Shown: positions 3,350-60,740 of the stretch, in pieces
Layout of the letters: each line of letters begins with the position of its first letter
How positions within the stretch are numbered: the first letter of the stretch is position 1
DNA from: an uncultured Bacteroidales bacterium
GTDB taxonomy: Bacteria; Bacteroidota; Bacteroidia; Bacteroidales; Paludibacteraceae
DNA: 64,000 bases
Reading direction: 5' to 3'
Assembly: GCA_902799705.1 (NCBI GenBank)
Contig: CADCBP010000010.1
Span: 384 to 64,383, forward strand
Made by a program: the position numbers and the translations under genes
The notes under the pieces: model-generated
Database searches by the model: none
Seen by the model: only the letters and a program-made list of their open reading frames with translations
What the model was told of the DNA's origin: nothing

Positions 3350-4828
3350 TCGCCTCCATTCGTTCAAAACGCTGATAGGTATAAACCAAGGTTTGCTCTC
3401 CACGCGCACGTCGCGCGCTATATAAGGTGTATCGCCTAATTTAGCCAACTGCGTGCGAATAGTAGCGAGTGCCTTTCCCGCATCGCGGGCGGGCTCGAAA
3501 GATAGTCCTTTCCCAACTATCCCCGTGAGAGGAGTGAGCCTGCCGTCTATAGGTGTATAGCTCAGTTCAAAACCATCGCTATTTTCTTTTAAAACGATAT
3601 TCACCGGAATCTTCCGCTCGCAATGCAGGGATTTGATAAACTCCGTGTCGAGATTTCGGTATATCGGTATATCAGTATATCGGGATCCCGAGAGCGCCTT
3701 ATTCACTTTTACCAAACTCCCATCCACGCCGTTCACGTTGCATCCTTCGCTGCCTATTGTCAATCCGTCGCCGTTATGAAGAACAATGCCCGGCTTCAGG
3801 CGTACACGCAAAGTGTTACCGCGCACTTCAAGCACTTCGCCGATATACTCGCCCGTGGACTTGGGAGTGTCCCAATTGGCCATAGGACGCGTGCGGCCGT
3901 GCAGAAAATAATCCGTCGCGCCGCGGTGGAAAGTCTTGGTCGGGTCTGGTACAAAAGAGCTTTTGTACACAGCCCCTCTATTTACCATTTGATCATTTAC
4001 TATTTGGTCATTTATTTGACCATTTTGCCATTTATCCAACTTCTCCCTGTAATATGCCGTCACGTTCGTCACATAGTCCGCGTCTTTCAGTCGCCCTTCG
4101 ATCTTAAAAGTCGTCACGCCGGCATCTATCAGTTCCGCCAAATAAGCACTTCTGTCCAAGTCCTGCAAGGAGAGTAAATGCCGCTGGTGGATGGGTTCGC
4201 CTTGGTCGTCCGGCACTTCGTTTCCTTCGGCATCGAGCAAGTCGTACGCCATGCGGCAGAACTGCGCACAAGCACCTCTGTTGGCAGAACGGCCGGCTAA
4301 CACTTCGGATATATAACAGCGCCCCGAGTAACTTACACATAGCGCGCCGTGCACAAAAACTTCCAACTCGATATCCGGAACGGCAGCATGAATGGCGCGT
4401 ATCTCTTCGATACTCAGTTCACGCGCTAAGACCACTCGTTTGAAACCCATGTCCCGCAGTCGGGCCACTTGTTCCGGAGTGCGGTTATCGCATTGAGTGG
4501 AAGCGTGCAGGCGAATAGGGGGAAGATTGAAATCCAACAGATGCAGGTCCTGAATGATGAGTGCGTCCACGCCGATATGGTACAGTTCCCCAATCATCTT
4601 CACCGCTTGCGGGTATTCATCGTCGTGCAGCAGGGTGTTTACCGTCACGAGCACTTGTACGCCGTAAGTGTGGGCATAGCGTACTACTTCCGCGAGGTCC
4701 TCTATGCTGTTTCCTGCTTTCTCCCGCGCGCCGAAAGCGGGCGCACCGATATAGATGGCGTCCGCGCCCGCCTGGATGGCAGCGAACGCAACGTTTTTAT
4801 CTCTGGCAGGACTTAGTAAAGAAAGCAT
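3329..4828 (-). CDS. U32 family peptidase-like protein (RlhA/TrhP-type), C-terminus cut off
   Basis: 499 residues. The N-terminal TIM-barrel-like part starts LLSPARDKNVAFAAI and GADAIYIGAP. The U32 signature is EVFVHGALCVSYSGRCYIS followed by NRGACAQFCR (about residues 157-190), whose cysteines bind an iron-sulfur cluster in the relatives RlhA and TrhP that hydroxylate rRNA or tRNA. It is probably an RNA-hydroxylation protein rather than a protease. The frame stops inside the 22-bp array at 3331. The missing C-terminal Cys domain is found intact downstream. An AT-rich repeat at residues about 265-284 and an octamer repeat at 3658-3681 lie inside the gene. Last main gene of the operon. Confidence 0.8.
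   Translation of the reverse strand: MLSLLSPARDKNVAFAAIQAGADAIYIGAPAFGAREKAGNSIEDLAEVVRYAHTYGVQVLVTVNTLLHDDEYPQAVKMIGELYHIGVDALIIQDLHLLDFNLPPIRLHASTQCDNRTPEQVARLRDMGFKRVVLARELSIEEIRAIHAAVPDIELEVFVHGALCVSYSGRCYISEVLAGRSANRGACAQFCRMAYDLLDAEGNEVPDDQGEPIHQRHLLSLQDLDRSAYLAELIDAGVTTFKIEGRLKDADYVTNVTAYYREKLDKWQNGQINDQIVNDQMVNRGAVYKSSFVPDPTKTFHRGATDYFLHGRTRPMANWDTPKSTGEYIGEVLEVRGNTLRVRLKPGIVLHNGDGLTIGSEGCNVNGVDGSLVKVNKALSGSRYTDIPIYRNLDTEFIKSLHCERKIPVNIVLKENSDGFELSYTPIDGRLTPLTGIVGKGLSFEPARDAGKALATIRTQLAKLGDTPYIARDVRVESKPWFIPISVLNEWRRQVVHGK
3658..3681. repeat. Octamer repeat inside the U32 gene
   Basis: Three copies of GGTATATC (one variant) in the coding region, giving the peptide RYTDIPIYR. In frame as a 24-base block. 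Confidence 0.7.
3980..4037. repeat. In-frame 7/8-bp repeat inside the U32 gene
   Basis: Units of the type TTTACCA and TTTGATCA alternate. The encoded segment DKWQNGQINDQIVNDQMVN is unlike the rest of the protein and probably an insertion in a surface loop. Confidence 0.7.
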
Positions 4829-4835
4829 AACTCTT

Positions 4836-5393
4836 TCACTTTTTCACAGCACGCAGTGCCTCTGAAATCCTGTACATCACAATGCCTGCCGTCACCGACA
4901 CGTTCATCGAGTGTTTGGTCCCGTATTGAGGGATTTCAATGCACCCGTCACAGATATCTATCACTTCCTGTTGTACACCGAACACCTCATGTCCGAGCAC
5001 CACCGCAATTCCTTTCTCCTTTAACCTTTCATTTTTCACCTTTCCCGCCACCTCTTCCAGTGTGCTTGAGTCGTAGGCTTGTTCAACGGCATAGACGGTA
5101 TATCCCTCAGCCTGCAGTGCGCGCACTGCCTCCAGCGTGTCCTTAAAATAGCGCCATTCGACCGTCTCTTCGGCTCCAAGAGCTGTCTTGTGCAGTTCCT
5201 GGTTCGGCGGGCAACAACAGATGCCGCAGAGGTCGATGCGTTCGATGCGCATGGCGTCAGCGGTGCGGAAGACGGCGCCCACATTATACTGGCTGCGCAC
5301 GTTGTCAAGCACCACCACCAGCGGCAGTTTGTCAGCAGCGCGGTAATCAGCCACGCTGAGACGTCCCATCTCCTGTGTCGTACGTTTTCTCAT
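4836..5393 (-). CDS. TrmH/SpoU family RNA 2'-O-methyltransferase
   Basis: 185 residues with the three SPOUT motifs: motif 1 DNVRSQYNVGAVFRTADA (about residues 30-47), motif 2 VVLGHEVFGV and motif 3 IPQYGTKHSMNVSVTAG near the C-terminus. These form the trefoil-knot S-adenosylmethionine site, and the Asn/Arg of motif 1 are the catalytic pair in the family. It probably methylates a ribose in tRNA or rRNA; the target cannot be read from sequence. It overlaps rimM by 4 bases. A heptad repeat (5011-5045) encodes the loop GKVKNERLKEKG between motifs 1 and 2. Confidence 0.85.
   Translation of the reverse strand: MRKRTTQEMGRLSVADYRAADKLPLVVVLDNVRSQYNVGAVFRTADAMRIERIDLCGICCCPPNQELHKTALGAEETVEWRYFKDTLEAVRALQAEGYTVYAVEQAYDSSTLEEVAGKVKNERLKEKGIAVVLGHEVFGVQQEVIDICDGCIEIPQYGTKHSMNVSVTAGIVMYRISEALRAVKK
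5011..5045. repeat. In-frame heptad repeat in the TrmH-type gene
   Basis: Five 7-bp units of the form CCTTTCT/CCTTTAA and close variants, phase kept throughout. Encodes a Lys/Glu-rich loop at about residues 117-128. Confidence 0.75.
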
Positions 5394-6791: not shown

Positions 6792-8008
6792 AATTCGGGA
6801 TTTAAAATGTTTCTGTCTTTGTATATCTGAAAATAGAGTTCCGTTTTCTGGTCTTGTTCGGGGTCGGTGAAGATGGTGCCGATAGTCTGTTTGGTCTCCA
6901 CCATGTCTCCTTGCTTGACATTCAGTTTGCTGAGGTTGGAATAGACGGTTCGGTAGTTACCGTGTTGTATGATGACGGCGTAAGTACCTCCTACCATGAA
7001 GCAGCTGGTCACCTCTCCTTTGTATGCGGCACGGGCTTTCATGCTGGCAGTTGTCTGGATGTAGATACCTTTGTTGTCTATCGTGACTTGCGAATAGACG
7101 GGGTGTTGCTGTTTGCCGTAGTGTCCGCTGATCATGCCTCGTTCCACGGGCCAGGGAAGGCGTCCTTTGTTTGCCTCAAATCCGCCGGCTATCAGTTTCT
7201 GCTCTTTGGTCAGTGAGGTCTTGGAGTCTTTCGCCGTCTGCTTACGGATCATGTCATCGATTTTCTTGTTCAGCTCCGCCACTTTCTTCTGTTTCTGGTT
7301 CAACTGCTTGGTCAGATCTTTCTCTTTGGACTTCAGCTGGTTGAGCATGTTTTGCTGCTTGCGTTCGTCACGTCTGAGGTGCTCCTGTTCGCGTTTGCGC
7401 GAGGAGAGGGCATTCTGTTTGTCGTTACGATTGGTTTGTAGCAGGTCGTTTTGCACGTCTATCTCCGCCTGGGTATTCTCAATGCGCTCTACCTGTCTCT
7501 GACGGAAATGTGCGAACTCCTGAAGGTAGCGTGCGCGGCGGGCTAACTGCTGGAAACTGTCGCTGCTGATGAGAAAGAGCAGGGGGGATTGTTGCAGCCG
7601 GGCGTAGTGGGTCTGACGTGTCATGCGGGCATAGTCCTCTTTGTAGCCTTCCAGCACCTGTTGCAGCGAGTCGCGGGTGTTACCCAAGGCTTTCATCTCA
7701 CGGTCGAGGGCGGTGATTTCGTTGTCCAGAGTACGGATGAGTTTCTTCTGGTTTTTGATGTTCTGCTGGGTGAGTTGCAGTTTGTTCAGGGTTGCCGTCT
7801 CATCTTTTTTCGTTTGTTTGAGCATGTTATTCGTCTGCTCAATCTCCTGTTGCAACTTACGTTGTTTCTTCTGCAGGTCTTTCACGCTGTCCGCTGCGTA
7901 AATTGAAAATTGAAAACTGAAAATTGAAAGGACCAAAAGCCCTAACAATCTTCTTACTATTTTCCTTTCAGCTTTCAACTTTAAACTTTCAAAGTATCTT
8001 TGACACAT
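6776..8008 (-). CDS. EnvC-like murein hydrolase activator (coiled coil plus degenerate LytM)
   Basis: 410 residues: signal peptide (to about residue 39, ...SIYAAD), long coiled coil of Lys/Gln/Leu (about 42-255) and a C-terminal M23/LytM domain (about 290-405). The LytM zinc ligands are missing: the normal HxxxD region reads QVTIDNKG and the HxH position reads QHGN, so it is probably an activator of amidases at the septum, as E. coli EnvC, rather than an enzyme. The N-terminus is encoded by two heptad arrays (7900-7927, 7965-7992). It overlaps DUF4292 by 20 bases. Confidence 0.75.
   Translation of the reverse strand: MCQRYFESLKLKAERKIVRRLLGLLVLSIFSFQFSIYAADSVKDLQKKQRKLQQEIEQTNNMLKQTKKDETATLNKLQLTQQNIKNQKKLIRTLDNEITALDREMKALGNTRDSLQQVLEGYKEDYARMTRQTHYARLQQSPLLFLISSDSFQQLARRARYLQEFAHFRQRQVERIENTQAEIDVQNDLLQTNRNDKQNALSSRKREQEHLRRDERKQQNMLNQLKSKEKDLTKQLNQKQKKVAELNKKIDDMIRKQTAKDSKTSLTKEQKLIAGGFEANKGRLPWPVERGMISGHYGKQQHPVYSQVTIDNKGIYIQTTASMKARAAYKGEVTSCFMVGGTYAVIIQHGNYRTVYSNLSKLNVKQGDMVETKQTIGTIFTDPEQDQKTELYFQIYKDRNILNPELWIAK
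7900..7992. repeat. Two heptad arrays encoding the EnvC-like signal peptide
   Basis: Array 7900-7927: AAATTGA and AAACTGA units, four copies. Array 7965-7992: CTTTCAA-type units, four copies. The block between them (GGACCAAAAGCCCTAAC and TCTTCTTACTAT) is nearly repeated at 9461-9490 before another exported protein. Confidence 0.8.
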
Positions 8009-8543
8009 CTACTTGCGTATATTTGTTCAGCCGTATATTGTTCACTCTCACGGGTACGTCGAGTTGGCGTGCGGGATATTCGATTACCAGTTCGATCATC
8101 TCTTCGCCGAACGAGTACACGAGTCGCGCTCTCTCGCTGCCTGTAGGCAAGTCAGCGGTGCAAATCTGCTGGAGTTCGTCCCAGTTGAGGGATGGGGTCA
8201 GCCGCCGGTTGATGTCCGCGTAGGTGACTTTGGCGTAGCGGCCGTGGAGCTTGTCGATCGCGGTGACTTCGATAGGTGTCGCTTCGACGCGTAGTATCTC
8301 CATGCCTAAAAGAGGCATCACGCTGATGACGAGCATCGAGTCGTGTACCGTCTGCATCGTCACGTTTGCCGACAGACGTTCTTCGTTGGTCGTCACGGTC
8401 GCCCGTGCTCCTTGTATGAGGCAGGTGTGCCATGCCGGTACACTGATCTCTGACGGCTGATTGCTGATAGCTCCTCTCTTGGCGCCGCAAGCCGCGAGCA
8501 GCAAGGCGGCACACACCAATACTATGTATTTATTTAATCGCAT
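7989..8543 (-). CDS. DUF4292 family lipoprotein
   Basis: 184 residues with lipobox LLAAC (Cys about 19). The fold is that of the LolA/LolB-like DUF4292 family, which in Bacteroidota lies between a TPR protein and a M23/EnvC-like gene exactly as here. A role in envelope lipoprotein or lipid handling is suspected but not shown. A heptad repeat (8442-8476) encodes AISNQPSEIS right after the lipobox, the flexible tether region. It overlaps the TPR gene by 14 bases. Confidence 0.75.
   Translation of the reverse strand: MRLNKYIVLVCAALLLAACGAKRGAISNQPSEISVPAWHTCLIQGARATVTTNEERLSANVTMQTVHDSMLVISVMPLLGMEILRVEATPIEVTAIDKLHGRYAKVTYADINRRLTPSLNWDELQQICTADLPTGSERARLVYSFGEEMIELVIEYPARQLDVPVRVNNIRLNKYTQVDVSKIL
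8442..8476. repeat. In-frame heptad repeat in the DUF4292 gene
   Basis: Units ACTGATC, TCTGACG and near variants, five in phase. The unit type nnCTGAn is shared with the arrays in ftsW, murE and batD. Confidence 0.75.
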
Positions 8544-9510
8544 TCAGATGTTTTTTCACTTCTTTGACTGTTTCCTCGTTTTGGGCATGCAAGAGGGCGC
8601 GATTCAGGTAGAACTTCGCCAGGTCGTTCTGTCCTTTGAGGTGCAAAATCCATCCGTAGGTATCGAGATAGATAGCATTGTTCGGGTCCTCGCGAATGGT
8701 TATTTCGCTCATCCGTTCCGCTTTCTGCAGGTCGCCTTTATGGGTGGCGAGCATGTAGGCGTAGTTGTTCAAGACGCTTATGTTGCCGGGTTGGATGGCT
8801 AATATCTTGTCGAAGGTAGCGTATATCTCTGCGGGCTTGGCTTTCAGACGCTCCAGTGTCTCTGCGCGGAAGAGGAGGAACTGGATGTCTGTGGGGTCGA
8901 GTTCGAGGTATCTGTCCACTACGACCAATGCCTTTTTAGGCTTGTTGATCGTCGCATAGATGCCATAACGCGTCGCTGCACTATAGACCGTAAATCCTTT
9001 CACGCCGTCAATACGGTCCTGTATTTTGAGAGCTTTCTTCCATTCGCGAAGTCCGATATAGACGCGTTGCAGTTGCTCCATGAGCTCGGCGTTCTCAGGA
9101 TTCTCTTTCAACGCCCGCTCCATGACATACATGGCTTGGATGACATCCTCTTCCGTCTTATGTTCCAAGAGCGCGGACGTATAGCGATACCATGAGTCGC
9201 GAGGGTTCGCTTGGAAAGCACGTTTGAGTGCGTCCATTGCCCGTTCTTCCTGTCCCATCATATGATAGAGTACGCCGAGATATTCGAGTGTCTTCCCGTC
9301 GTCGGGACGGATAGCGTCGCAGAACTCCAATAGCACCAACGCTTGTGGGAGATCATTGTGGTCCAATGCCTCTCTCGCCGCGTACCAGTAGTAGGAGAAT
9401 TGCTGTTCCTGCTCCACCGTCTGAGGAGCAGAAAGTGAAAATTGAAAAGTGAAAAGTGAAAGGACCATAAGCCCTAACCCTCTTCTGACTATGTTTCTTT
9501 CACCTTTCAT
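8530..9510 (-). CDS. TPR-repeat exported protein
   Basis: 326 residues: signal peptide (to about residue 27, ...FSLSAPQ) and then tandem tetratricopeptide repeats, for example ALVLLEFCDAIRPDDGKTLE, AMDALKRAFQANPRDSWYRY, AERMSEITIREDPNNAIYLD and LAKFYLNRALLHAQNEE. Such TPR proteins are protein-protein scaffolds of the periplasm or outer-membrane inner face. Gene order TPR, DUF4292, EnvC-like is typical for Bacteroidota. The signal peptide is encoded by repeat DNA closely related to that of the EnvC-like gene. Confidence 0.8.
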   Translation of the reverse strand: MKGERNIVRRGLGLMVLSLFTFQFSLSAPQTVEQEQQFSYYWYAAREALDHNDLPQALVLLEFCDAIRPDDGKTLEYLGVLYHMMGQEERAMDALKRAFQANPRDSWYRYTSALLEHKTEEDVIQAMYVMERALKENPENAELMEQLQRVYIGLREWKKALKIQDRIDGVKGFTVYSAATRYGIYATINKPKKALVVVDRYLELDPTDIQFLLFRAETLERLKAKPAEIYATFDKILAIQPGNISVLNNYAYMLATHKGDLQKAERMSEITIREDPNNAIYLDTYGWILHLKGQNDLAKFYLNRALLHAQNEETVKEVKKHLNAIK

Positions 9511-9541
9511 TCTTTCACTCTTTCAACTTTCAACTTTCAAA
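9432..9541. repeat. Heptad arrays at the start of the TPR gene and dut-TPR gap
   Basis: AAAGTGA/AAATTGA units (9432-9459) encode the hydrophobic core of the signal peptide. TTTCAAC-type units (9497-9541) fill the entire 26-bp gap to dut and the first codons of the TPR gene. Closely similar to 7900-7992. Confidence 0.8.
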
Positions 9542-9971
9542 GTTCCCCGCTATGTCCGAAGCCTCCTGCGCCTCGTTCGGTGTCGCTCAGTTCCGTCACC
9601 TCGACGATGTCGGGTGTCTCGTGGCGTGCGATGACCATCTGACAGATACGCTCTCCGGGTTCGATAGTCTGCGGTTCACCACTCAGGTTGATGAGTATGA
9701 CTCCCACTTCTCCGCGGTAGTCGGCGTCGATGGTTCCCGGGGTGTTGAGCACGGTCAGTCCGCGTTTGAGAGCCAGCCCGCTACGCGGACGAATCTGTGC
9801 CTCGTAGCCTGCCGGCAGTTCGATGAACAGTCCCGTGGGAATCAACTTGCGTTCCATCGGTGCTAATGTAACAGGTGCGTCGATGTTACAGCGTATATCC
9901 AAGCCTGCCGCCTGCGCACTCTCGTACTTAGGCAGGGCGTTCTTGCTCTTATTGATAATCTTCAAAACCAT
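9537..9971 (-). CDS. dut: dUTP diphosphatase
   Basis: 144 residues with all five trimeric dUTPase motifs: [50 protein letters not shown] and the C-terminal [10 protein letters not shown], whose glycine-rich arm closes over the active site. It hydrolyses dUTP to dUMP and diphosphate, keeping uracil out of DNA and feeding dTMP synthesis. Length is normal. It starts 29 bases after the lipid kinase gene in the same operon, and the repeat array of the next gene begins at its stop codon. Confidence 0.95.
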
Positions 9972-14379: not shown

Positions 14380-15633
14380 TTATTCCAGAGTGACGATAGG
14401 GGCGTCTTCGGCGGATTCTTCGCGGGTGACGTTGACGCGAGCGCGCAGTTCTTTCTGCTCCCGGCTCACGCCCATCAGGATGCCGAAATAGACAGAAGTG
14501 ATGAGCACGGACGTTCCTCCCCTCGAGATGAGGGGTAAGGGTTGGCCCGTAACCGGACCTAATCCTACGGCGACGAGCATAGATATCAACGCCTGGCAGG
14601 TGATCATCAGGGCTAAGCCCATCGTCATCAGCATCGCCGGCATGTCGCTGTAGCGGCTGGAAATATTACAAGCTCTAAAGAGAATAGCCAAGTACAAGAA
14701 GATGACAAAACCCGCCCCCAAGACACCCGACTCCTCCACGATGATAGCGAAGATATAATCAGCGAACGCCAGCGGCAGGTAGTCGCGCTCCTTACTGTTA
14801 CCCGGCAAGACACCCAGCGGTGAAGCACCGCCGCGTGCGATAGCCACCGACGCATACACCTCTTGAATATTCTCATCGGTGAGCACGTATTTCTGATCTC
14901 TGACTTCTGACGTCTGATCTCCGATATCCAGATGCCGGTCGATACGGCTGACCCAGGTGGTAGCGCGTTTGAACGGTCCGTGCATCGGTCGGTTAGGTCG
15001 TACAAAACCGAACTCAACGATGGCGTATCCGAGGCACAAGGCGACAACGGCGATGCCTACCACCGACAGCGTATATTTCCACGGAATGCGCGCGAGAACC
15101 CAGAGGCAGAAGATGATGAGTCCGATCAGCACCGCCGTGGAGAGGTTGGACGCCATGACCGGCAGCATGACCACCGCCGAGAGAATCAGTGTACGGAAGA
15201 AATACTTGCTCTTGTCCTCCTCCGTTTTGATGCGTGCGAGCTGATCAGCCACGACGATGATGAGGCTGAGCTTGGCGAGTTCGGAGGGTTGGAAGGTGAT
15301 GCCCGCTATACGCACCCACCGCGCCGCACCGTTGATTGTCACCACCAGCGGATTGCCCGGTATCATCGTCGAATAGACGAGCAGCGTGCTGATACCTAAG
15401 AGCACATACCCGCCGAAACGCACCCAGTACGACGGTATATACTGTATGCCGAACGCCGCCACCACGCCGAGCACGATGAAGAACATCTGCTGTCCGATGG
15501 GTCCGAGAGCGGAATGGTGCGAATAGACGAGCGTGCTCGAAGCGGAGAAGAGGGCTATAATCGCCACCGCTATCAGCAGCGCGAACAGCCACCAGTACGT
15601 GCGGTCGATATTTTGTAAATTCGGCTTTTTCAT
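14380..15633 (-). CDS. ftsW: Peptidoglycan glycosyltransferase FtsW
   Basis: 417 residues, SEDS family, about ten membrane helices. Conserved parts: NGAARWVRIAGITFQPSELAKLSLI (about 100-125) and the C-terminal GPVTGQPLPLISRGGTSVLIT. FtsW polymerises lipid II at the septum with FtsI. The large loop between helices holds a heptad insertion (14892-14926, residues about 236-248, DIGDQTSEVRDQKY). It overlaps murD by 4 bases and is the last gene of the cluster here; murG, murC, ftsQ, ftsA and ftsZ do not follow. Confidence 0.9.
   Translation of the reverse strand: MKKPNLQNIDRTYWWLFALLIAVAIIALFSASSTLVYSHHSALGPIGQQMFFIVLGVVAAFGIQYIPSYWVRFGGYVLLGISTLLVYSTMIPGNPLVVTINGAARWVRIAGITFQPSELAKLSLIIVVADQLARIKTEEDKSKYFFRTLILSAVVMLPVMASNLSTAVLIGLIIFCLWVLARIPWKYTLSVVGIAVVALCLGYAIVEFGFVRPNRPMHGPFKRATTWVSRIDRHLDIGDQTSEVRDQKYVLTDENIQEVYASVAIARGGASPLGVLPGNSKERDYLPLAFADYIFAIIVEESGVLGAGFVIFLYLAILFRACNISSRYSDMPAMLMTMGLALMITCQALISMLVAVGLGPVTGQPLPLISRGGTSVLITSVYFGILMGVSREQKELRARVNVTREESAEDAPIVTLE
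14892..14926. repeat. In-frame heptad repeat in ftsW
   Basis: Five 7-bp units TCTGATC, TCTGACT and close variants. A slip of one unit would shift the frame of an essential gene. Confidence 0.8.
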
Positions 15634-18284: not shown

Positions 18285-19766
18285 TTAAATATACTTCTTT
18301 ACTTCCTCGTGGTCGTCGAAATGGTGCTTGACGCCTTGGATGATCTGATAGTCCTCATGTCCTTTTCCGGCAACAAGGATGACGTCTCCCGGTTGAGCGA
18401 GGGTGCAGGCCGTCTGAATGGCTGCCGCGCGGTCCTCGATGACGAGGGTGGAGCGCAGTTCGCTCTCCGTCAGTCCGTCCGTCATATCTTTGAGAATCGC
18501 CTTGGGCTCTTCGTCACGCGGGTTGTCGCTCGTCAGGATCAACTGCTCGCTGCCTTTCTTCGCAATCTGCGCCATCATCGGTCGTTTACCTTTGTCCCTG
18601 TTACCGCCGCAACCGATGACGGTGATGAGCTTAGGCTGATGACTGACATCTGATGACTGATGGTTCCCTAAGATCTCGCGGATGGTTTGTATGACATTAT
18701 CCACGGCATCGGGTGTATGCGCATAATCCACGATGGCGGTCCAGCCTTTGGGACTGTGGATGGTCTCGAAACGTCCGTTGACGGGTTTCAGGGTGCTGAG
18801 AACCCGCAGTACGTCCAGTTCATCAAAACCCAGACACAGCGCGGCACCGTAGATACAGAGGAGGTTGGAGACATTGAACCGTCCGACGAGCGGCACAAAG
18901 ACCTCCTTGCCGTTGATACTCAGCATCATGCCGTCAAAACCCTCTTCGAGGATCTGTGCGCGGTAGTCTGCGAGGGCGCGGGTGGAGTAGGTGTGCACGG
19001 CCGCCTTGCAGTTCTGCGTCATGACGAGTCCGTTCCTGTCGTCTTTGTTAGTGACCGCAAACGCCTCTTTCTTCAGTCCATCGAAGAGACGTTTCTTCGT
19101 GTCGCGGTAGTTGTCGAACGTCTTGTGATAGTCGATATGATCGCGCGTGAGGTTGGTAAAGAGCGCTCCGTCGAAGTCCAGTCCCGCGATGCGCTCCTGG
19201 GCGATGGCATGTGAGCTCACCTCCATGAAAGCGTACGTACATCCGGCATCGACCATCCTTTTCAGGAGCCCGTTGAGCTCGATGGCATCGGGCGTGGTGT
19301 GCGTCGCAGGAATGGCTTCCTCTTCGATATAATTAACTACCGTGGACAGCAGCCCCGCCTTGTGTCCCAGCGCGCGCACGAGTTTATATAACAGGGTGGC
19401 GATGGTGGTTTTGCCGTTGGTGCCCGTCACTCCAACGAGCGTCAACTGCTTGCTCGGCTCACCGAACCACCGACTCGCCAACAGTCCCAAGGCGCGGTCG
19501 GTGTTGTCCACAAGGATATAGGTTACGGGTGAGGACGTACCGGATACGGGGAGGTAATCCTTATTGGAAAGGACGATTGCTGCGGTGCCCTTGGCGACAC
19601 AACCATCGATGAACGTGTGTCCGTCTACTGCTGTGCCGACCTGGGCAACGAAGAGGTCGCCTTGTCCAATCTTACGGCTGTCAAAATGCAAACCGTGGAT
19701 CTCCTTGTTCACGTCGCCGATGACTTCAATCGGCTCAATCGCTGTCAATAATTCGCTTAGAAGCAT
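18285..19766 (-). CDS. murE: UDP-MurNAc-tripeptide synthetase, diaminopimelate-adding
   Basis: 493 residues. ATP loop VTGTNGKTTIATLL (about 112-125), the Mur ligase EVSSHAIAQERI, and the DNPRDE motif that marks meso-diaminopimelate-specific MurE. It adds meso-A2pm to UDP-MurNAc-L-Ala-D-Glu. A heptad repeat (18634-18661) encodes NHQSSDVSHQPKL just before ITVIGCGGNRD, at the edge of the C-terminal domain. Spacing to ftsI is 28 bases filled with TTAATTT heptads. Confidence 0.95.
   Translation of the reverse strand: MLLSELLTAIEPIEVIGDVNKEIHGLHFDSRKIGQGDLFVAQVGTAVDGHTFIDGCVAKGTAAIVLSNKDYLPVSGTSSPVTYILVDNTDRALGLLASRWFGEPSKQLTLVGVTGTNGKTTIATLLYKLVRALGHKAGLLSTVVNYIEEEAIPATHTTPDAIELNGLLKRMVDAGCTYAFMEVSSHAIAQERIAGLDFDGALFTNLTRDHIDYHKTFDNYRDTKKRLFDGLKKEAFAVTNKDDRNGLVMTQNCKAAVHTYSTRALADYRAQILEEGFDGMMLSINGKEVFVPLVGRFNVSNLLCIYGAALCLGFDELDVLRVLSTLKPVNGRFETIHSPKGWTAIVDYAHTPDAVDNVIQTIREILGNHQSSDVSHQPKLITVIGCGGNRDKGKRPMMAQIAKKGSEQLILTSDNPRDEEPKAILKDMTDGLTESELRSTLVIEDRAAAIQTACTLAQPGDVILVAGKGHEDYQIIQGVKHHFDDHEEVKKYI
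18634..18661. repeat. In-frame heptad repeat in murE
   Basis: Four 7-bp units, GGCTGAT, GACTGAC and variants. Encodes a polar loop at about residues 367-379. Confidence 0.8.
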
Positions 19767-34857: not shown

Positions 34858-34862
34858 AACTT

Positions 34863-34897
34863 CTCTAAACTTTCAACTTTCAACTTTCAACTTTATC
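34863..34897. repeat. Heptad array in the batB-batC gap
   Basis: CTTTCAA three times, flanked by CTCTAAA and CTTTATC. The last codons of batB (KVES, stop) lie in it. Confidence 0.8.
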
Positions 34898-35944
34898 CTT
34901 TTCCCCGAAAATATCCAGACGGGTGATGGCTTTGTTCTTGCGGTTGAAGATAAAGAAGTCAATCACAAGCAGTAACAGGGCAATCAAAGCAAAGCTTTGG
35001 AACTGCTCGTTATAGTCGGTATAGACTTGCGTCTCTATCTCCTGGGTCGCCAGTTTGTCAAGCTCTTTCTGGATGGCTTTGGTGGCGGTGTTGGTGTTGT
35101 CGCACCGCACGTAGATACCTCCTCCGGCCTGCGCAATCTCGCGGCACATGTCTTCGTTCAACCGGCTGACGACTACATTGCCTTCACGGTCTTTGCGGAA
35201 GTTATTTGTGCCGGGCATGGGAATAGGACTGCCTTCCGGCTTTCCGATACCTGCTACCAGCACGCGAATACCCGCTTCTTTGGCACGTTGGGCTACTGCT
35301 ACCGCATCGTCTTCGTGGTTCTCACCATCGGTGATCAGGATGATCGCGCGGTTAACGTCCGCCACTGGTTGTCCGTCTCGGTCACTGACCGCTCCGAAAC
35401 AACGGATACTCGTGCTCAACGCCTGACCGATAGCCGTTCCCTGCGTCTTGATCAACTCAGGTTTGATGGAGTTCAAAAACATCTTCGCGGAGATATAATC
35501 ACAAGTGATCGGTAACTGTACGAAGGCATCGCCGGCGAAGACGACGAGTCCCACTTTGTCATTGACCATGTTGTCCATCAGCTTGGACAGCATCTGTTTG
35601 GCGCGGTCAAGACGGTTAGGTGCCACATCTTCCGCGAGCATCGAGTTGGATATATCCAGTGCCACGATGGCCTCTATGCCCTGCCTTTTCTCCGTGCGCT
35701 CGCTCTGACCGAACTGAGGACGCGCGGCGGAGAGGATGAGCAACGTCAACGCCACGAGCACGATAGTGAACTTAACCGTCGGACGAACACGACTCGCGTT
35801 CGGCATCAAGGCTTCCATCAACTCAGGGTCACCAAACTCCTGCAACTGACGACGCTTGCGAATGGTGTATAACCAGTAGGCTACCGCAAAAACCGGCACA
35901 CTCACCAGCAACCATAATATCTCTATATTTGCAAATCTAAACAT
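34880..35944 (-). CDS. batB: BatB: membrane VWA-domain protein
   Basis: 354 residues: helices at the N-terminus (about 8-26 and 58-75), a von Willebrand A domain with metal site DISNSMLAEDVAPNRLD (MIDAS DxSxS) and further TQGTAIGQAL and ILITDGENHEDDA, and a C-terminal helix. VWA domains bind partner proteins through the metal. The final residues KVES are encoded by the heptad array. Confidence 0.88.
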   Translation of the reverse strand: MFRFANIEILWLLVSVPVFAVAYWLYTIRKRRQLQEFGDPELMEALMPNASRVRPTVKFTIVLVALTLLILSAARPQFGQSERTEKRQGIEAIVALDISNSMLAEDVAPNRLDRAKQMLSKLMDNMVNDKVGLVVFAGDAFVQLPITCDYISAKMFLNSIKPELIKTQGTAIGQALSTSIRCFGAVSDRDGQPVADVNRAIILITDGENHEDDAVAVAQRAKEAGIRVLVAGIGKPEGSPIPMPGTNNFRKDREGNVVVSRLNEDMCREIAQAGGGIYVRCDNTNTATKAIQKELDKLATQEIETQVYTDYNEQFQSFALIALLLLVIDFFIFNRKNKAITRLDIFGEKDKVES

Positions 35945-35982
35945 AGTCTTTTGTTTTGAATTGCCCTTTCTCCCTCCCTTGA

Positions 35983-37949: not shown

Positions 37950-38834
37950 TTATTTAAAAAGCATCATCAGCTTTTTCACATAGTCCTCATCCGTCCGCAT
38001 ACTCACATGGTTCATTCCGGTCTTCGTATAGACAGTCTCTAAGGCCGCTTGCTGGTCACGCCATGCCTGCCCGTACGCGTTGCGTACACTCGCCAGGCTG
38101 GTATCCGCCCAGACACGCGCACCCGTCTCCGGGTCACGTACCTTCAACAGTCCCACATTCGGCATCTCTGCATCGCGACGGTCGTAGATCTGTATCGCAC
38201 TCAGGTCATGCTTCCTGCTCGCAATCACAATCGGCGGAACCGTATTCTTCCATTGTCCATTGTCCATTGTCCATTGTCCGATGAAGTCCGAAATCAGGAA
38301 CGCTGTACAACGCCGTTTCTGGGCATTGATCAGGAACTGAAGGGCGGCATTGATATCCGTGCCGTGGTGTTCGGGCTCGAAACTCAATAACTCGCGGATG
38401 ATATGCAGGACATGGCTCTTACCTTTCTTCGGCGGAATGAATTTCTCTACGCGGTCGGAGAAGAAGATCACACCCACTTTGTCGTTGTTCTCGATCGTTG
38501 AGAAGGCGAGGGTAGCGGCTACTTCAGCCATCGTGTCGCGTTTCATCTGACTCGCCGTACCGAAGTTACGGCTGCCACTGACATCGACGAGTAACATCAC
38601 CGTCAGCTCTCGCTCTTCTTCATAGACCTTGATGTAAGGACGGTTCATGCGAGCCGTCACGTTCCAGTCGATGGAACGTACATCATCACCCGGCTGGTAT
38701 TCGCGCACCTCGCTGAAAGCCATACCACGGCCTTTGAACTGGCTGTGGTACTCGCCTGCGAAGATATTGCGACTCAACCCGTGGGTCTTGATCTCTATCT
38801 TCCTAACTTTTTGTAATAACTCTTCACTTGTCAT
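37950..38834 (-). CDS. DUF58 domain protein of the MoxR/Bat operon
   Basis: 294 residues. The DUF58 core FAGEYHSQFKGRGMAFSEVREYQPGDDVRSIDWNVTARM (about residues 25-63) is followed by a VWA-like fold (VMLLVDVSGSRNFGT). Partner of MoxR ATPases. A pure heptad array TCCATTG (38249-38276) encodes GQWTMDNGQWK (about residues 185-195) between two beta strands. Confidence 0.85.
   Translation of the reverse strand: MTSEELLQKVRKIEIKTHGLSRNIFAGEYHSQFKGRGMAFSEVREYQPGDDVRSIDWNVTARMNRPYIKVYEEERELTVMLLVDVSGSRNFGTASQMKRDTMAEVAATLAFSTIENNDKVGVIFFSDRVEKFIPPKKGKSHVLHIIRELLSFEPEHHGTDINAALQFLINAQKRRCTAFLISDFIGQWTMDNGQWKNTVPPIVIASRKHDLSAIQIYDRRDAEMPNVGLLKVRDPETGARVWADTSLASVRNAYGQAWRDQQAALETVYTKTGMNHVSMRTDEDYVKKLMMLFK
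38249..38283. repeat. In-frame heptad repeat in the DUF58 gene
   Basis: Four exact TCCATTG units and a fifth TCCGATG. The purest heptad array in the window, so likely the youngest. Confidence 0.85.
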
Positions 38835-41535: not shown

Positions 41536-41850
41536 CCTCTCGTCGCTATTCGGTCTTTCCCTTCTCGTCTCTCTCTATCGTCTTTCCTTCTCGTCTCTCT
41601 CTATCGTCTTTCCTTCCCGTCTTTCTCTTCCCGTCTTTCTCTTCCCATCTTTCTCTTCCCATCTTCCCTATCGTCTTTCTCTTCCCGTCTTTCTCTTCCC
41701 GTCTTTCTCTTCCCATCTTCCCTATCGTCTTTCTCTTCCCGTCTTTCTCTTCCCATCTTCCCTATCGTCTTTCCCTTCCCCTCTTTCCCTTCCCCTCTTT
41801 CCCTTTCCCCTCTATAATCTCTGTGCACTTCTCGCACATCATTGTGCGAG
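41536..41850. repeat. CT-rich heptad/14-mer array
   Basis: From about 41560 to 41815 units GTCTTTC and TCTTCCC alternate (period 14), with ATCTTCC and CTATCGT variants; then the text TCTGTGCACTTCTC and the copy B hairpin at 41831-41850 (CTCGCACA, TCAT, TGTGCGAG). No gene on either strand is supported. Confidence 0.8.
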
Positions 41851-41900
41851 CTCTTTCTCTCTTTCATTCTTTCATTCTTTCCAAAAATCCTTCCCCAAAA

Positions 41901-53997: not shown

Positions 53998-53999
53998 GC

Positions 54000-56664: not shown

Positions 56665-56667
56665 TTC

Positions 56668-56741
56668 GCTCCTCCTTTCACTCTTTCATTCTTTCACTCT
56701 TTCACTCTTTCACTCTTTCATTCTTTCATTCTTTCACTCTT
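56668..56741. repeat. Octamer array between PorT-like and DUF5686 genes
   Basis: ACTCTTTC and ATTCTTTC units repeated about nine times in the whole gap. Same array type as 60737-60795 and 40750-40785. Confidence 0.8.
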
Positions 56742-59566
56742 TACAGCGAGAACCTCACAGTCACTTTGACGCCGTTGCGTCCCCATCCGGGGATGCGCCG
56801 ACGGGCTTGAATCATGATAGGCTCTCCGGTCGCGGGATCAATCATCGGGTTACCGGCTCCGTCTAACTGCGGCACTTTGTACGGCAACTCATACTCATTA
56901 TACGTCAGACGGCGGATGTAGTCGATACGGATGAATTTGAAGATGTTCTCAAAGCCCGCGGTGATCTCCAGATACGGCAACTTGCCGATAGGCGATGAAG
57001 TCGTTCCGGATACATAGTAGCCGTCCTTGTCGAAAGTGGCTGTTTGCGGGAACTCATACAAACCGCTACCCGTCTCTAAGTACGGGTTGTTCTTTTTCGT
57101 CAGACCGCCGTAGATCCCCGCGAAACTGACTACGCCGCGCAACTTGAGTTTGTTGATACCCGGGATGCGGTTTAAGATCCAGCCCTTGAAATAATAGGTC
57201 ATGTAGAGCGACACATATTCGTCCATCATGAACTCCATCGGCTTCATCAGGTTGAACGCGCGCTGGCCCAGCAAGATACTCGTTGAGGTCGGAGGGATAT
57301 GTAACTTCGTGAACGGCACCTGTTGCCAGATGATACCCGTCTTGACGCGCAGATCGAGGTGACCGAACGCGGAGAACCAGAAGCGCTTGTCGAACATCAC
57401 CTCTGTCTTGTTGTAGAAGAAACCCTTGCCGCCGTTGTGACGGTCATCCAGAAAACCGATGGTATGTGTCAACTTGATGGTCGGGGCATCTTTCTCAATG
57501 GTCCAAGGACTCTTAACACCCGCACGGTCCATTCCAATCGTCGAACCAGGCGAGTACTCGAAATCAATCATCGCCTCGTAGTTGCGGTACGAGCCGATAG
57601 AAGTCGTGCTTCTCGTGTACGACGTGTCTTGCGTCACAGGGTCGATATGTTGTGTCCAATCCACACGGTCGTAGCGTAGCGAACCCGCAGCACGGTTGTT
57701 CGTGAAGTCGAAATGGGTGGAGAGAATCATGTTGTTGCGCCATTCCTTCATATATTCCAACTTCGCATGGAAGACGTACTGGGCGAACGGCATGGTCGGC
57801 GTGCCGAACGGGATAGACATGATGATATTATCACGTCGGACCACATCCGTCAACTGACCGGGTTCTTCGATGTCATATTGGCCGGTGAGCTGGATATGAT
57901 GCTTCAGACGACCGTCGTACGGATGATACTCGTGCTTTCCGAAGGTGTAGATGAACGTGCCGCTGTATTTGGGCAGCAGGTCTTTCGTTCCGAAGGCGAC
58001 GTAGCCGCGGAAGAAGATCTGGTCGTGTAAGCGGGCGGTCGAGATACCTCCGACACGCAGACGCACTCCCTCTAACATGTTCCAGCTGATGAAGTTGTAT
58101 ATCGGACCGAAATCAAACTTACTGAGGTACATATATTCCGCCTTGCGAGTCGGGACATATTCGGTCGTCACGGCATTGACGAACAATGCCAGGCTGTTGA
58201 ACTTGGGCGTGTTGGTGAACTCCCGCACTAAGTCCACTACCGAACTCTCGTACTTCGTCAATGGTTCGGGACGCATTTCATCCGTCCAATCGCCTTCCCA
58301 TACCAGTTCCGCGGTCGAGTCATTCTTCTCGACCTCACCGGTTGCGAAAGGAGAAAAAGTCTCTTTGGCAATGGGGGTGTCTAAATCCCAGTCGGTGTAG
58401 ATCTTCGTCTGACGGGCTAACATGCCTCGCTTGTTGTTGAAGATATAGAACTTCGCGTAGGTCGTCGTGCGGTCAGGTGCCCAGAGACCGTTGTCCAACT
58501 GCTTGTAACTGTGCTCAATAGAGAAGTTGCTCACGAAGTTGAGGTTGATATCAGGAGGCACGTTGATCGTGTATTTCTTCAAACGATACGTGCTGTCATT
58601 TACGATGTACAGGTGTCCTGTGAAACCGTAACTCTCCGAGTTGACAGGTACGAATGCAAGGTCGATACACGGGTAACCGTCCACCATAATGGTGTCCATG
58701 ATATAGTACTGGTAGAACGTCACGGCGAGGGTCGAACTCAACGGAGAGACGAAGCGGTTGAACAACAGGTTCATACTGTTGTCGTTGATATCTACGTCTT
58801 TGAAGATGGCATCGACATTCTTCTGGAACGACTCCGAGCCGATTACGCTCTCGATACCGAAGATACGTTTCTTGTCCAGCACTTTCTTCTCGCGGTGCGG
58901 CTTGCGCTGGTAGTATTCCGTATTGAGGTGCTCGCGGATACTCACTGTTACATTCGGATACACACCGGTTGTGTCGATATATTTCTTGACAAACTGGAAA
59001 TCTCTCCAGAACGGCTTGTTCCAGTTGACTTTGATGTTATCCAACGCAAAAGACATGCGGGCATAACTGTTGGCTGTGTACTGGTCGGCTGTCAGCACGC
59101 AGTGCTTGTCTTTGTTGGCTATGACGTTCTTGATCAGTTCAACCGCCGGATTACCTTTGCGCTTGTACTCGCGTTTGCGGTTCTTCGGGGTTACTACGAT
59201 GTCCTGCAAACCGTACACGTCCGGCGTCATCTTCACCTTCACGCCCTTACGGTTCTGACCCTTACGCAGCGTCAGCAACTCCGTCTTAAAACCAATCATC
59301 TGAAAATTCAGCGACGTATAACCTTGTGTGTTGCTGATACTGAAATTACCGTCTACGTCTGATGTCGTACCTACTTCCGAAGGCACCACGCCCTTGTTGG
59401 TCGTGGACTTGAGAAAATATATCTGTACGAAGGGCAGGGTCTCTCCGGTGTCGCCGTCAACAACCACACCCGATATACTGGTCCGTACAGGGTCTTCCTG
59501 TGCCATCACCATCCCGGCGAAGCACAAGAGTATAAATACTATATAATACCTAATTCTTTCCATCAT
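56741..59566 (-). CDS. DUF5686 outer-membrane protein with carboxypeptidase-regulatory domain
   Basis: 941 residues. Signal peptide (to about 22), CarboxypepD_reg-like domain (about 30-110: ISGVVVDGDTGETLPFVQIYF), the helical/beta middle part and a C-terminal beta-barrel ending in VKVTVRFSL. This is the DUF5686 family of Bacteroidota outer-membrane proteins, TonB-receptor-like in the N-domain, role unknown. The start codon lies inside an ATGATGGA octamer repeat. Confidence 0.85.
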   Translation of the reverse strand: MMERIRYYIVFILLCFAGMVMAQEDPVRTSISGVVVDGDTGETLPFVQIYFLKSTTNKGVVPSEVGTTSDVDGNFSISNTQGYTSLNFQMIGFKTELLTLRKGQNRKGVKVKMTPDVYGLQDIVVTPKNRKREYKRKGNPAVELIKNVIANKDKHCVLTADQYTANSYARMSFALDNIKVNWNKPFWRDFQFVKKYIDTTGVYPNVTVSIREHLNTEYYQRKPHREKKVLDKKRIFGIESVIGSESFQKNVDAIFKDVDINDNSMNLLFNRFVSPLSSTLAVTFYQYYIMDTIMVDGYPCIDLAFVPVNSESYGFTGHLYIVNDSTYRLKKYTINVPPDINLNFVSNFSIEHSYKQLDNGLWAPDRTTTYAKFYIFNNKRGMLARQTKIYTDWDLDTPIAKETFSPFATGEVEKNDSTAELVWEGDWTDEMRPEPLTKYESSVVDLVREFTNTPKFNSLALFVNAVTTEYVPTRKAEYMYLSKFDFGPIYNFISWNMLEGVRLRVGGISTARLHDQIFFRGYVAFGTKDLLPKYSGTFIYTFGKHEYHPYDGRLKHHIQLTGQYDIEEPGQLTDVVRRDNIIMSIPFGTPTMPFAQYVFHAKLEYMKEWRNNMILSTHFDFTNNRAAGSLRYDRVDWTQHIDPVTQDTSYTRSTTSIGSYRNYEAMIDFEYSPGSTIGMDRAGVKSPWTIEKDAPTIKLTHTIGFLDDRHNGGKGFFYNKTEVMFDKRFWFSAFGHLDLRVKTGIIWQQVPFTKLHIPPTSTSILLGQRAFNLMKPMEFMMDEYVSLYMTYYFKGWILNRIPGINKLKLRGVVSFAGIYGGLTKKNNPYLETGSGLYEFPQTATFDKDGYYVSGTTSSPIGKLPYLEITAGFENIFKFIRIDYIRRLTYNEYELPYKVPQLDGAGNPMIDPATGEPIMIQARRRIPGWGRNGVKVTVRFSL

Positions 59567-59574
59567 TCCATCAT

Positions 59575-59687
59575 TTCATATGACCGCTTCGCTAAAGGAC
59601 AAAAGACCGCTTCGCTAAAGGACAAAAGACTTGTCACTATCGGTCGGACGTTTACAACTCAGAGTCGGATCATTTTCCATCAATCCA
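59575..59687. repeat. 23-bp tandem pair and octamers in the aroG/aroQ-DUF5686 gap
   Basis: GACCGCTTCGCTAAAGG plus ACAAAA, two copies starting at 59582 and 59605, flanked by CCATCATT octamers on both sides. No gene or promoter recognised here. Confidence 0.75.
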
Positions 59688-60740
59688 TCATTGTTGTTTA
59701 AGGCTCTCTTCGTGTATCAGGTCCCAGATCTGCATTGCAAACGCTGGTGAGAGTCCTAACCTTTCAACTTTCAACTTTAAACTTTCAACAATAGTCTGAT
59801 ACCGCTCCGGCTGCAACGGTGCTACACCGTGCGCTTTTTTCCATTCGCCTATCCGTCTGCTTACATCCATTCGTGCCGCAATCGTATCCCATAACTGCTC
59901 GTCCAACTCGTCTATCTCCGCTCGCAGCCAGTTTAACTGCGGCTCTGCCGCAATACACTGCTGCGAAGCAGCGTTTACACTGCAGCCTCTGGCTGCGTTT
60001 AACTGCCGCAACGCGGCGTTTAACTCATCAGGGCTTATCTGCTGTTCAGAATCAGATAATGCGTGCTCCGGATCACAATGCACTTCCACCATCGCGCCGT
60101 CGAGCCCTAACTCCGCTATCTTCTCCAACAACTCCGGCACCCGCTGTGCATCGCCGCTTAAATGACTCGGGTCCAGCAACATCGGTATATCCGGCCGCGC
60201 CAACCTTACCTTATGCGCCATCGCCCAACATGGCTGATGGTTACATCCGCGATGAACAGCCATCACCGGCACTCCGGTCTTTTCTAACCGCTCTATGTTC
60301 CCCAACCACAACGCCGCGTCTGCATTGACGGGATTTTTGATAAGCAATCCTTTCAAATCGCCAATCTTCAATCTCAAATCACAAATGGAGTCAGCCAATG
60401 ATTGTACAACAATCGGTGTCGCTGACGACCTTGCTCCTATCCACAGATAGTCCACGCCGGTTTCCAGGGCTGCGGCTACATGTTCGGGTGTCGCTACCTC
60501 CGTGGCAATCGCCATCCCGTATGTCCGTTTTACGTCGGCGAGCCATTCCAACGCCTGCGCGCCAGCTCCTTGAAAAGTGCGCGGGTTCGTGCGCGGTTTC
60601 CATACGCCCGCGCGAAAAATAAATTTAAAATCTCCAGCCTCAAATCTCAAACTGGAAATCGCCTTCGCGGTCTCCATCACCTGTTCTCGACTCTCCGCCG
60701 CACACGGACCTACTATGTATATTGCCCTTCCCCCCTTCAC
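59688..60740 (-). CDS. Bifunctional DAHP synthase/chorismate mutase (type II), repeat-laden
   Basis: 350 residues. N-terminal KDSA/NeuB-type DAHP synthase (IVGPCAAESREQV, then FRAGVWKPRTNPRTFQGAGAQALEWL, and PMLLDPSHLSGD) and C-terminal AroQ chorismate mutase (LRAEIDELDEQLWDTIAARMDVSRRIGEWK). It makes DAHP and prephenate in the shikimate pathway. Start is a GTG at 60740, directly in an octamer array, because no in-frame ATG precedes. Three heptad arrays (60621-60662, 60354-60388, 59762-59789) and a three-hairpin chain (59960-60022) are inserted in frame. Confidence 0.82.
   Translation of the reverse strand: MKGGRAIYIVGPCAAESREQVMETAKAISSLRFEAGDFKFIFRAGVWKPRTNPRTFQGAGAQALEWLADVKRTYGMAIATEVATPEHVAAALETGVDYLWIGARSSATPIVVQSLADSICDLRLKIGDLKGLLIKNPVNADAALWLGNIERLEKTGVPVMAVHRGCNHQPCWAMAHKVRLARPDIPMLLDPSHLSGDAQRVPELLEKIAELGLDGAMVEVHCDPEHALSDSEQQISPDELNAALRQLNAARGCSVNAASQQCIAAEPQLNWLRAEIDELDEQLWDTIAARMDVSRRIGEWKKAHGVAPLQPERYQTIVESLKLKVERLGLSPAFAMQIWDLIHEESLKQQ
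59762..59789. repeat. In-frame heptad repeat in the chorismate mutase domain
   Basis: TTTCAAC, TTTAAAC units, four copies; encodes VESLKLKVERL in the helix before the C-terminus. Confidence 0.8.
59960..60022. repeat. Three-hairpin chain inserted in frame in the linker of aroG/aroQ
   Basis: Stems GCTGC/GCAGC, GCAGCC/GGCTGC and GCCGC/GCGGC with loops GAA, TCT and AAC; each is followed by GTTTAA or GTTTAC. Modules are 21, 24 and 21 bases, so frame is kept. Encodes repeated (L/V)NAA peptides. Confidence 0.85.
60354..60388. repeat. In-frame heptad repeat in the DAHP synthase domain
   Basis: CAAATCG, CCAATCT and variants, five units; encodes SICDLRLKIGDLKG. Confidence 0.75.
60621..60662. repeat. 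In-frame heptad repeat near the N-terminus of aroG/aroQ
   Basis: AAATCTC, CAGCCTC and variants, six units; encodes AISSLRFEAGDFKF. Confidence 0.75.

What the first reader, a model, noticed from the sequence alone, without database searches (positions are those of the whole stretch)
3980..60662. Heptanucleotide arrays inserted in frame in many conserved genes
Period-7 arrays of degenerate units lie within the TrmH-type gene (5011-5045), DUF4292 (8442-8476), ftsW (14892-14926), murE (18634-18661), batD (three sites), the DUF58 gene (38249-38283) and the aroG/aroQ gene (three sites), always in likely surface loops or linkers. The same units fill gaps between genes. Since 7 is not a multiple of 3, slipping by one unit would shift the frame of essential genes, so these are possible mutation hot spots. 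Heptameric short tandem repeats are known from cyanobacteria; I know of no description of such in-frame use in Bacteroidales.
Basis: partly seen in the sequence, partly recalled or inferred. Interest (0 to 1): 0.87.

Follow-up and report, generated by a model that had tools for sequence, protein, structure and literature searches.

The report
Heptamer arrays rewrite conserved gene loops
In a group of uncultured Bacteroidales bacteria, short seven-letter DNA repeats take over tolerant stretches (loops, linkers, export signals) of ordinary housekeeping genes, and related species often carry different repeats at the same spot, so parts of essential proteins are being rewritten by repeat DNA.

Summary
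The observation largely holds. In 464 kb of the genome, strict lag-7 arrays number 31 and lag-8 arrays 20, none at periods 2-6; Markov shuffles give 0. Clear arrays lie in TrmH, DUF4292, ftsW, DUF58, batD site 1 and two aroG/aroQ sites. murE, U32 and batD sites 2-3 are weak here and rest on relatives. Outside the window, arrays sit in SecA, EngB, NadA, MurG and others.

Same-genus alignments show lineage-specific repeat DNA: at ten sites, 53 of 194 loops of relatives hold an array, against 192 of 8444 random windows of the same genes. murE and ftsW are insertions; SecA, DUF58, batD and aroG site 2 are overwritten at nearly constant length; TrmH is mixed. Units differ between species, often in register (TrmH 0 of 1000 rotations; 6 of 20 tests below 0.01). 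A 95-bp heptamer-armed signal-peptide-like cassette is at eight places, seven at starts of exported-looking ORFs.

Heptanucleotide repeats are known, some inside ORFs. Recurrent occupation of conserved protein sites, in-register unit change and cassette copying are the new part. Mechanism is inferred; slippage hot spots were not testable.

The parts
38249..38279 (-). CAATGGA x4.4 array in the DUF58/VWA gene (ORF 37950-38834); the same loop holds GTTACGG, GTCGAAA, other heptamers, C-rich palindromes or plain sequence in relatives
18630..18671 (-). murE insertion (42 nt where short relatives have 18, so +8 aa), ATCAGTC-type units, between TIREI and LITV
   Evidence: weak alone (10/14)
14890..14922 (-). 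ftsW insertion, ATCAGAC-type units; C-rich palindrome at the same site in G002
5010..5045 (-). TrmH/SpoU methylase array; 11 of 16 relatives carry arrays at this site, seven of them AATxxxA units in the same phase
8439..8471 (-). DUF4292 gene, ATCAGCA-type array near the N-terminus
33606..33638 (-). batD site 1 array
32721..32756 (-). batD site 2 (weak here; arrays in 4 of 16 relatives)
32619..32657 (-). batD site 3 (weak here; arrays in 9 of 14 relatives)
59754..59789 (-). aroG/aroQ site 2, GTTGAAA units in the chorismate mutase domain, with a TGA->TTA unit variant keeping the frame open
60348..60383 (-). aroG/aroQ site 1, GATTTGA-type units in the DAHP synthase domain
3980..4024 (-). U32 peptidase site; weak here, different repeats in relatives
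7896..7993 (-). signal-peptide-like cassette: GAAAG-type arm, core, TTTTCAA-type arm = N-terminus of the M23 peptidase ORF 6776-8008
9430..9547 (-). second copy of the cassette (84% identical over 95 nt) at the start of the TPR protein ORF 8530-9510
32143..32178 (-). N-terminal segment of ORF 31417-32184 made of TTTAGAG units; other units in relatives
34861..34902 (.). CTTTCAA array between ORFs 34144-34857 and 34880-35944
56673..56745 (.). octamer CTTTCACT array between genes
60725..60799 (.). octamer CTTTCACT array between genes

Best explanation
Period-7 (and period-8) arrays are a dispersed, fast-changing repeat class that settles where sequence is tolerated: gene gaps, N-terminal signal segments, linkers and loops of conserved genes. 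Step 1, arrival (inferred): short pieces of repeat DNA are copied into a new place, adding to or overwriting some tens of bases, by short-patch illegitimate copying or template switching; slippage from a chance native seed may start some arrays. Step 2, turnover (supported by register at some sites, mechanism inferred): once in place, a variant unit spreads to the neighbouring units, so the array changes type in register. Step 3, filter (supported): only changes that keep frame and structure survive, so arrays stay near constant length. A tandem heptamer reads the same seven-residue cycle in all three frames of a strand, which makes it an easy filler. Composite modules can be copied whole, as the cassette shows.
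For: Excess over shuffles. Arrays of the own genome share units far above a random 7-mer null: 55 of 1128 pairs, null mean 1.1, maximum 8 in 2000 draws. Sites: 53 of 194 loops of relatives against 192 of 8444 random windows of the same genes. Different units at one site in different species. Overwriting at near-constant length in SecA, where 25 of 30 species show no repeat by eye. Register: 6 of 20 tests (10 sites x 2 anchors) below 0.01, TrmH 5' anchor 0 of 1000. Sister pair G015/G030 differs in unit but not length at batD sites 2 and 3. Cassette: eight near full-length matches in the own genome, the query included, seven at starts of different ORFs; the non-repeat core is clearly shared by four. 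All five sense arrays of TGA-bearing GAAAG-type units carry a TTA variant. EngB, NadA and MurE arrays align at gaps of solved homologues; the MurG array aligns to a segment of nearly equal length.
Against: No arrival event was caught with its donor. A search for a junction scar gave a weak excess at murE (0 of 200 label shuffles) and none at ftsW (144 of 200). Register was absent at DUF58, SecA, aroG1 and U32, and related species are not independent. At TrmH the array-free G036 contains CAAATCACT, a possible native seed, which fits slippage. In-ORF units are not enriched for stop-free cycles (19 of 30 against 0.687 for all heptamers). murE register argues for common descent, while the tree asks for 8-9 changes; gene exchange between species could reconcile them. 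Two of 12 long murE loops (G044, G060) show no recognised repeat.
Confidence: 0.55

Rival explanations
1. Local slippage only: arrays grow from chance seeds in tolerant places, the polymerase favours steps of 7-8 bases and certain units, so the same units arise many times independently (the view of Mrazek et al. 2007 as reported in PMC4679880 section 3).
For: Periods 7 and 8 dominate and 2-6 are absent at the strict threshold; possible seed CAAATCACT in an array-free TrmH; CAATGGA arrays occur in unrelated phyla.
Against: I saw no seed at murE or SecA (by eye); units differ between species at sites with conserved flanks; four cassette copies share non-repeat core sequence, which slippage cannot make; unit sharing is far above a random 7-mer null.
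Confidence: 0.27
2. Insertion of short mobile elements of the kind of Rickettsia palindromic elements or MITEs, with arrays as remnants or passengers.
For: C-rich palindromes and GACCGCTTCGCT-type units use the same sites as heptamers; the cassette has heptamer arms in opposite orientation around a core.
Against: I noticed no common element ends or target duplications in the alignments, but made no systematic search; heptamer arrays have no fixed length or ends; overwriting without length change is not insertion.
Confidence: 0.1
3. The arrays are selected for a function: phase variation of the genes that hold them, or translational control where they abut start codons.
For: Arrays lie at several gene starts; 7 is not a multiple of 3.
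Against: Many genes hit are housekeeping (SecA, MurE, MurG, EngB, NadA), where switching off would not be useful; array-bearing TrmH loops do not differ in length by 7 or 21; units differ between species.
Confidence: 0.05
4. Assembly or gene-calling artefact in metagenome bins.
For: The named records of related organisms are mostly metagenome bins and arrays are repeats.
Against: Arrays are in frame, lie between conserved residues and recur at the same sites in separately held species genomes.
Confidence: 0.02

Closest known systems
Heptanucleotide direct repeats (TAACTGA) of Beggiatoaceae, Cyanobacteria and five Bacteroidetes (MacGregor 2015, PMC4679880; I saw the outline with abstract and sections 3, 10 and 15)
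   Same: Period 7, dispersed, scattered in phylogeny, overlapping stops and starts, a minority inside ORFs; the paper notes stops in all three frames on the forward strand and weighs mobility.
   Different: In its main genome one unit dominates, and ORF cases sit mostly at ends or in hypothetical proteins; here many units, deep inside conserved genes, with the same site filled with different units across species.
Short tandemly repeated repetitive (STRR) heptamers of cyanobacteria, including those in rnpB and the tRNA-Leu intron (recalled; two searches gave listings only)
   Same: Heptamer arrays occupying tolerant parts of functional genes.
   Different: The cases I recall are RNA genes or gaps; here protein-coding loops and N-terminal segments.
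Long simple sequence repeats of prokaryotes, heptamers most common (Mrazek et al. 2007, as told in PMC4679880 section 3)
   Same: Dominance of period 7.
   Different: As told there, slippage is the proposed cause and coding repeats are mostly multiples of three.
Rickettsia palindromic elements in ORFs (recalled; two searches gave listings only)
   Same: Repeats within conserved genes, in frame, in tolerated places.
   Different: Palindromes of defined families; here tandem heptamers without fixed ends, although C-rich palindromes share the sites.
Short-patch double illegitimate recombination in Acinetobacter (recalled; searches did not find it in the library)
   Same: Short stretches replaced by foreign or ectopic DNA with small length change.
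   Different: Not tested here; no donor or scar identified.

Membership tests
Heptanucleotide simple sequence repeats (STRR/LSSR/TAACTGA kind) | Tandem units of 7 nt in excess of chance | tested here: met
   31 strict arrays in 464 kb, 0 in five Markov shuffles
Heptanucleotide simple sequence repeats (STRR/LSSR/TAACTGA kind) | Dispersed: same unit at many places | tested here: met
   CTTTCAACTTTCAA has 31 exact, partly overlapping matches at 18 places of the own genome; 55 of 1128 array pairs share a unit
Heptanucleotide simple sequence repeats (STRR/LSSR/TAACTGA kind) | Mainly intergenic | tested here: not met
   29 of 48 arrays inside predicted ORFs, 12 at edges, 7 outside; ORF coverage is 91%, so gaps are still relatively enriched
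Heptanucleotide simple sequence repeats (STRR/LSSR/TAACTGA kind) | Copy number changes in 7-nt steps | not testable with these tools
   no reads or strain genomes; between species, array-bearing TrmH loops are 69, 60, 57 and 45 nt
Rickettsia palindromic elements | Inserted in frame in conserved genes | tested here: met
   murE and ftsW
Rickettsia palindromic elements | Palindrome able to form a hairpin, of defined family | tested here: not met
   heptamer arrays are direct tandem repeats of many units; the C-rich palindromes at the same sites could qualify but were not studied
Phase-variable contingency loci | Length variation within a population switching a gene | not testable with these tools
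   one genome per species, no reads
DNA uptake sequences | One conserved word in many copies | tested here: not met
   26 unit classes among 48 arrays

The most novel reading that the evidence does not exclude
A length-neutral rewriting process: tandem heptamer arrays inside essential genes change their unit in concert without leaving frame, and composite heptamer modules are copied as ready-made start regions and signal peptides. Because a heptamer array reads the same heptapeptide cycle in every frame of a strand, and 21 nt gives one seven-residue heptad, this would be a standing supply of new loops, helices and export signals in this lineage.
Probability: 0.3. Interest if true: 0.86.

Novelty: new variant of a known kind. 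Interest (0 to 1): 0.73.

Why it matters
It shows short tandem repeats acting as a large source of change inside conserved bacterial proteins, at sites that several species have filled independently or re-typed. It gives natural maps of permissive sites in SecA, MurE, MurG, EngB and others, and a case where signal-peptide-like starts spread by copying of repeat modules. The cause of period 7 and of unit turnover becomes testable by comparing strains of array-rich and array-poor species of one genus.

Tried and rejected
Mutational scar at junctions: substitutions next to the murE insert were slightly raised, ftsW not; left as inconclusive. Loss of mismatch repair as the cause: MutS domain II found in 58 of 61 genomes; the three misses (G018, G031, G059) have stated completeness of 54, 84 and 71%. 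Selection for stop-free units in ORFs: 19 of 30 against 0.687 expected, no enrichment; one consensus unit (the SecA array) was misread by that script. The reversed-pattern control for CTTTCAA is useless because the reversed array is the same array; for CAATGGA it works: 18 of 395 genomes, this one included, against 4 of 395 with the reversed word. Density per genome from loci fetched around array genes is biased by the choice of loci. In one search the stretches of G407 and G213 had been chosen near known CAATGGA matches and are biased upward; those of the own genome are the first parts of three contigs, not a random draw. A first register script failed for TrmH because of a bad anchor and was repeated with a new anchor (where G002 was missed, where own G000 is not in the TrmH, U32 and batD sets). 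Literature: ten searches used; only PMC4679880 was opened; apart from it I saw no paper on in-frame heptamers in Bacteroidales genes in these listings, which is not proof of absence.
Full report
What was checked. The window is G000:C10:384-64383 of a 2.325 Mb genome in 45 contigs. A same-genus genome, G002, is the uncultured Bacteroidales bacterium RUG12423, shown by shared sequence with contig CACYZT010000001.1; that RUG bins come from rumen is recalled. The genus itself was not named by any tool.

Are the arrays there? Tandem Repeats Finder lists period-7 arrays at the named places in TrmH, ftsW, murE, batD site 1, DUF58 and two places in aroG/aroQ, but not in DUF4292. At 17 of 21 lag-7 matches the window has 11 places. 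In the window plus 20 stretches of 20 kb from contigs 1, 2 and 7 (464 kb), 48 places reach that level against 0 in two order-2 Markov shuffles; at the stricter 18 of 21 there are 31 at period 7, 20 at period 8, 13 at period 11 and none at periods 2-6, with 0 in five shuffles. Four sites are weak in this genome alone: murE, batD sites 2 and 3, and U32 have only 8-10 of 14 matches.

Where they lie. Of the 48 period-7 arrays, 29 lie inside predicted ORFs, 12 at ORF edges and 7 outside. ORFs were called by length, so some may be false. Outside the window 24 ORFs of 150 aa or more held a period-7 or -8 array; I gave 20 of the 24 to Pfam, and 19 matched a family, 17 above the curated cut-off: SecA, MurG (glycosyltransferase 28), NadA, a 50S-binding GTPase (EngB by solved homologues), phosphatidylserine decarboxylase, pseudouridine synthase, tyrosine recombinase, a TonB receptor and others. 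All ten window ORFs tested have Pfam matches above cut-off. In EngB, NadA and MurE the array lies at a gap of the alignment to solved structures; in MurG it aligns to a segment of nearly equal length. I did not inspect the structures themselves.

Insertion or replacement? Relatives come from 61 genomes of the genus, at most 30 loci per gene with this genome included. murE: 18 of 30 loci have a short loop (KKEG or close variants), 12 of 30 a long one, 8 residues longer here and 8-20 in others (18 nt against 42-78). The long loops are made of ATCAGTC, AATAGCC, ACAAAGG, GTCGAAA, ATCAGCC or CCTCAAA units, C-rich palindromes or GACCGCTGCGCT-type sequence; two (G044, G060) show no recognised repeat. 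On a tree of 27 species built from three proteins, the 10 carriers need 8 changes by Fitch and 9 under gain-only counting; shuffled labels average 8.3 changes. ftsW: an ATCAGAC array in this genome and a palindrome in G002, none in the other close relatives. SecA: 25 of 30 species show no repeat by eye (typically AELENxTGLSxEEKQQKKDD); G000 (CAATGGA), G034 (AATGACG), G055, G059 (ATCAGCC or GTCAGCC type) and G036 have about 30 bases overwritten, with 1-3 residues of length change; three of these five pass the 11-of-14 rule. DUF58: the loop holds CAATGGA, GTTACGG, GTCGAAA, GGCTAGA-type units, palindromes or plain sequence at similar lengths in close relatives. TrmH: two of five array-free relatives have shorter loops, three do not. 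aroG site 2 is replaced without length change against distant relatives.

Hot sites. Over ten sites 58 of 200 loops of 21 nt or longer hold an array by the 11-of-14 rule; without this genome it is 53 of 194. Random windows of the same genes give 192 of 8444 (2.3%), of which 144 are in the two aroG sets, where I think the other aroG site is being hit. The loops were chosen because this genome has arrays there, so the relatives-only figure is the fair one. One search lists 217 loops, including 17 too short to score.

Units change together. At TrmH, 11 of 16 relatives have arrays; seven are AATxxxA units (AATCTCA, AATCACA, AATCTAA, AATCGCA, AATGGTA, AATGGAA twice) in the same phase from the conserved 5' anchor, and four are other units. 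Comparing only pairs with different units, similarity in register exceeds random rotation at TrmH (0 of 1000), batD3 (0.001), batD2 (0.004), murE (0.005) and aroG2 (0.006), weakly at DUF4292 (0.023), not at DUF58, SecA, aroG1 or U32; 6 of 20 tests are below 0.01, with no correction for relatedness. In the sister pair G015/G030, batD sites 2 and 3 have the same length but AATAGCC against ATCAGCC, and GTCGAAA against ATCACAA. I read this as turnover of the unit within an inherited array; replacement in place is the alternative.

Copying. Units are shared among places far above a random 7-mer null (55 of 1128 pairs against a mean of 1.1). A BLAST of array flanks revealed a 95-bp module at 7896-7993 and 9430-9547: GAAAG-type arm, core, TTTTCAA-type arm. 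Of 34 matches in the own genome eight, the query included, are near full length; the rest are mostly array arms. Seven of the eight begin different ORFs with readings such as KVKGERNIYRRLLGLIVLSIFHFQFSI; the eighth (L385) does not look like a gene start. The non-repeat core is clearly shared by four of them, so at least these are copies. The segments read as signal peptides by composition; no predictor was run. At ORF 31417-32184 the N-terminus is made of heptamers or octamers, often different ones, in 13 of 13 close relatives by eye and of ordinary sequence in the five distant ones.

Frame. A tandem heptamer reads the same seven-residue cycle in all three frames (shown for GTCGAAA); MacGregor 2015 noted for TAACTGA that the forward strand has stops in all three frames. 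Five of five sense arrays of TGA-bearing GAAAG-type units carry a TTA variant that keeps the frame open. Overall, in-ORF units are not enriched for stop-free cycles (19 of 30 against 0.687).

Breadth. Period-7 arrays per 100 kb: 9 in 400 kb of this genome, 30 in 40 kb of G015, 25 in 20 kb of G032, 2.5 in 40 kb of G036, 0 in 80 kb from four genomes of another family of the order; 12 in 60 kb of G407, whose stretches were chosen near known matches. CAATGGA repeats occur in 18 of 395 genomes of the phylum (reversed word 4 of 395). A scan of public genomes stopped at its limit with 119 stretches, of which the 80 listed include Bacteroidales, Chlorobi, Cyanobacteria, Firmicutes, Chloroflexi, Verrucomicrobia and Alphaproteobacteria, with many from one Peptococcaceae bin. 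Some of those lie in ORFs too, such as an arginyl-tRNA synthetase of a Patescibacteria bin.

Verdict. It belongs to the known kind of heptanucleotide repeats, but its recurrent occupation of conserved protein sites, re-typing in register and cassette copying make it a new variant. How arrays arrive and how units turn over is inferred.

Noticed in passing
L159:18229-18636 (own genome C1) and window 56673-56745, 60725-60799, 40743-40789, 41849-41883: Octamer CTTTCACT/CTTTCATT arrays, one over 400 bp long, as a second repeat class.
   Followed up: partly
window 59582-59630; L161 near 17480; L175 near 193: Dispersed GACCGCTTCGCTAAAGGACAAAA-type repeat; related units sit inside murE, U32, DUF58 and aroG of relatives at the same sites as heptamers.
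   Followed up: partly
window around 35960-36000 and 40786-40804; inside DUF58, murE, ftsW, aroG and U32 of relatives: C-rich palindromes (CCCTCCCCTCAAGGGAGGG type) use the same protein sites as heptamers, a third repeat class.
   Followed up: partly
L213:3748-3774: CAATGGA array inside an arginyl-tRNA synthetase gene of a Patescibacteria bin, so in-gene heptamers are not limited to Bacteroidales.
   Followed up: no
G000:C1:59996-60023 and 60907: A CTTTCAA array lies about 0.9 kb from the mutS domain match of this genome.
   Followed up: no
window 42999-52724: An ORF of 3241 aa, not examined.
   Followed up: no
window 62841-63365: 78-bp tandem repeats, 6.7 copies.
   Followed up: no
window 34273-34420: Glutamine-rich repeat tract in ORF 34144-34857.
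   Followed up: no
window 40086-40636 and 41553-41813: Long arrays with units of about 30 and 14 bp beside the octamer arrays.
   Followed up: no
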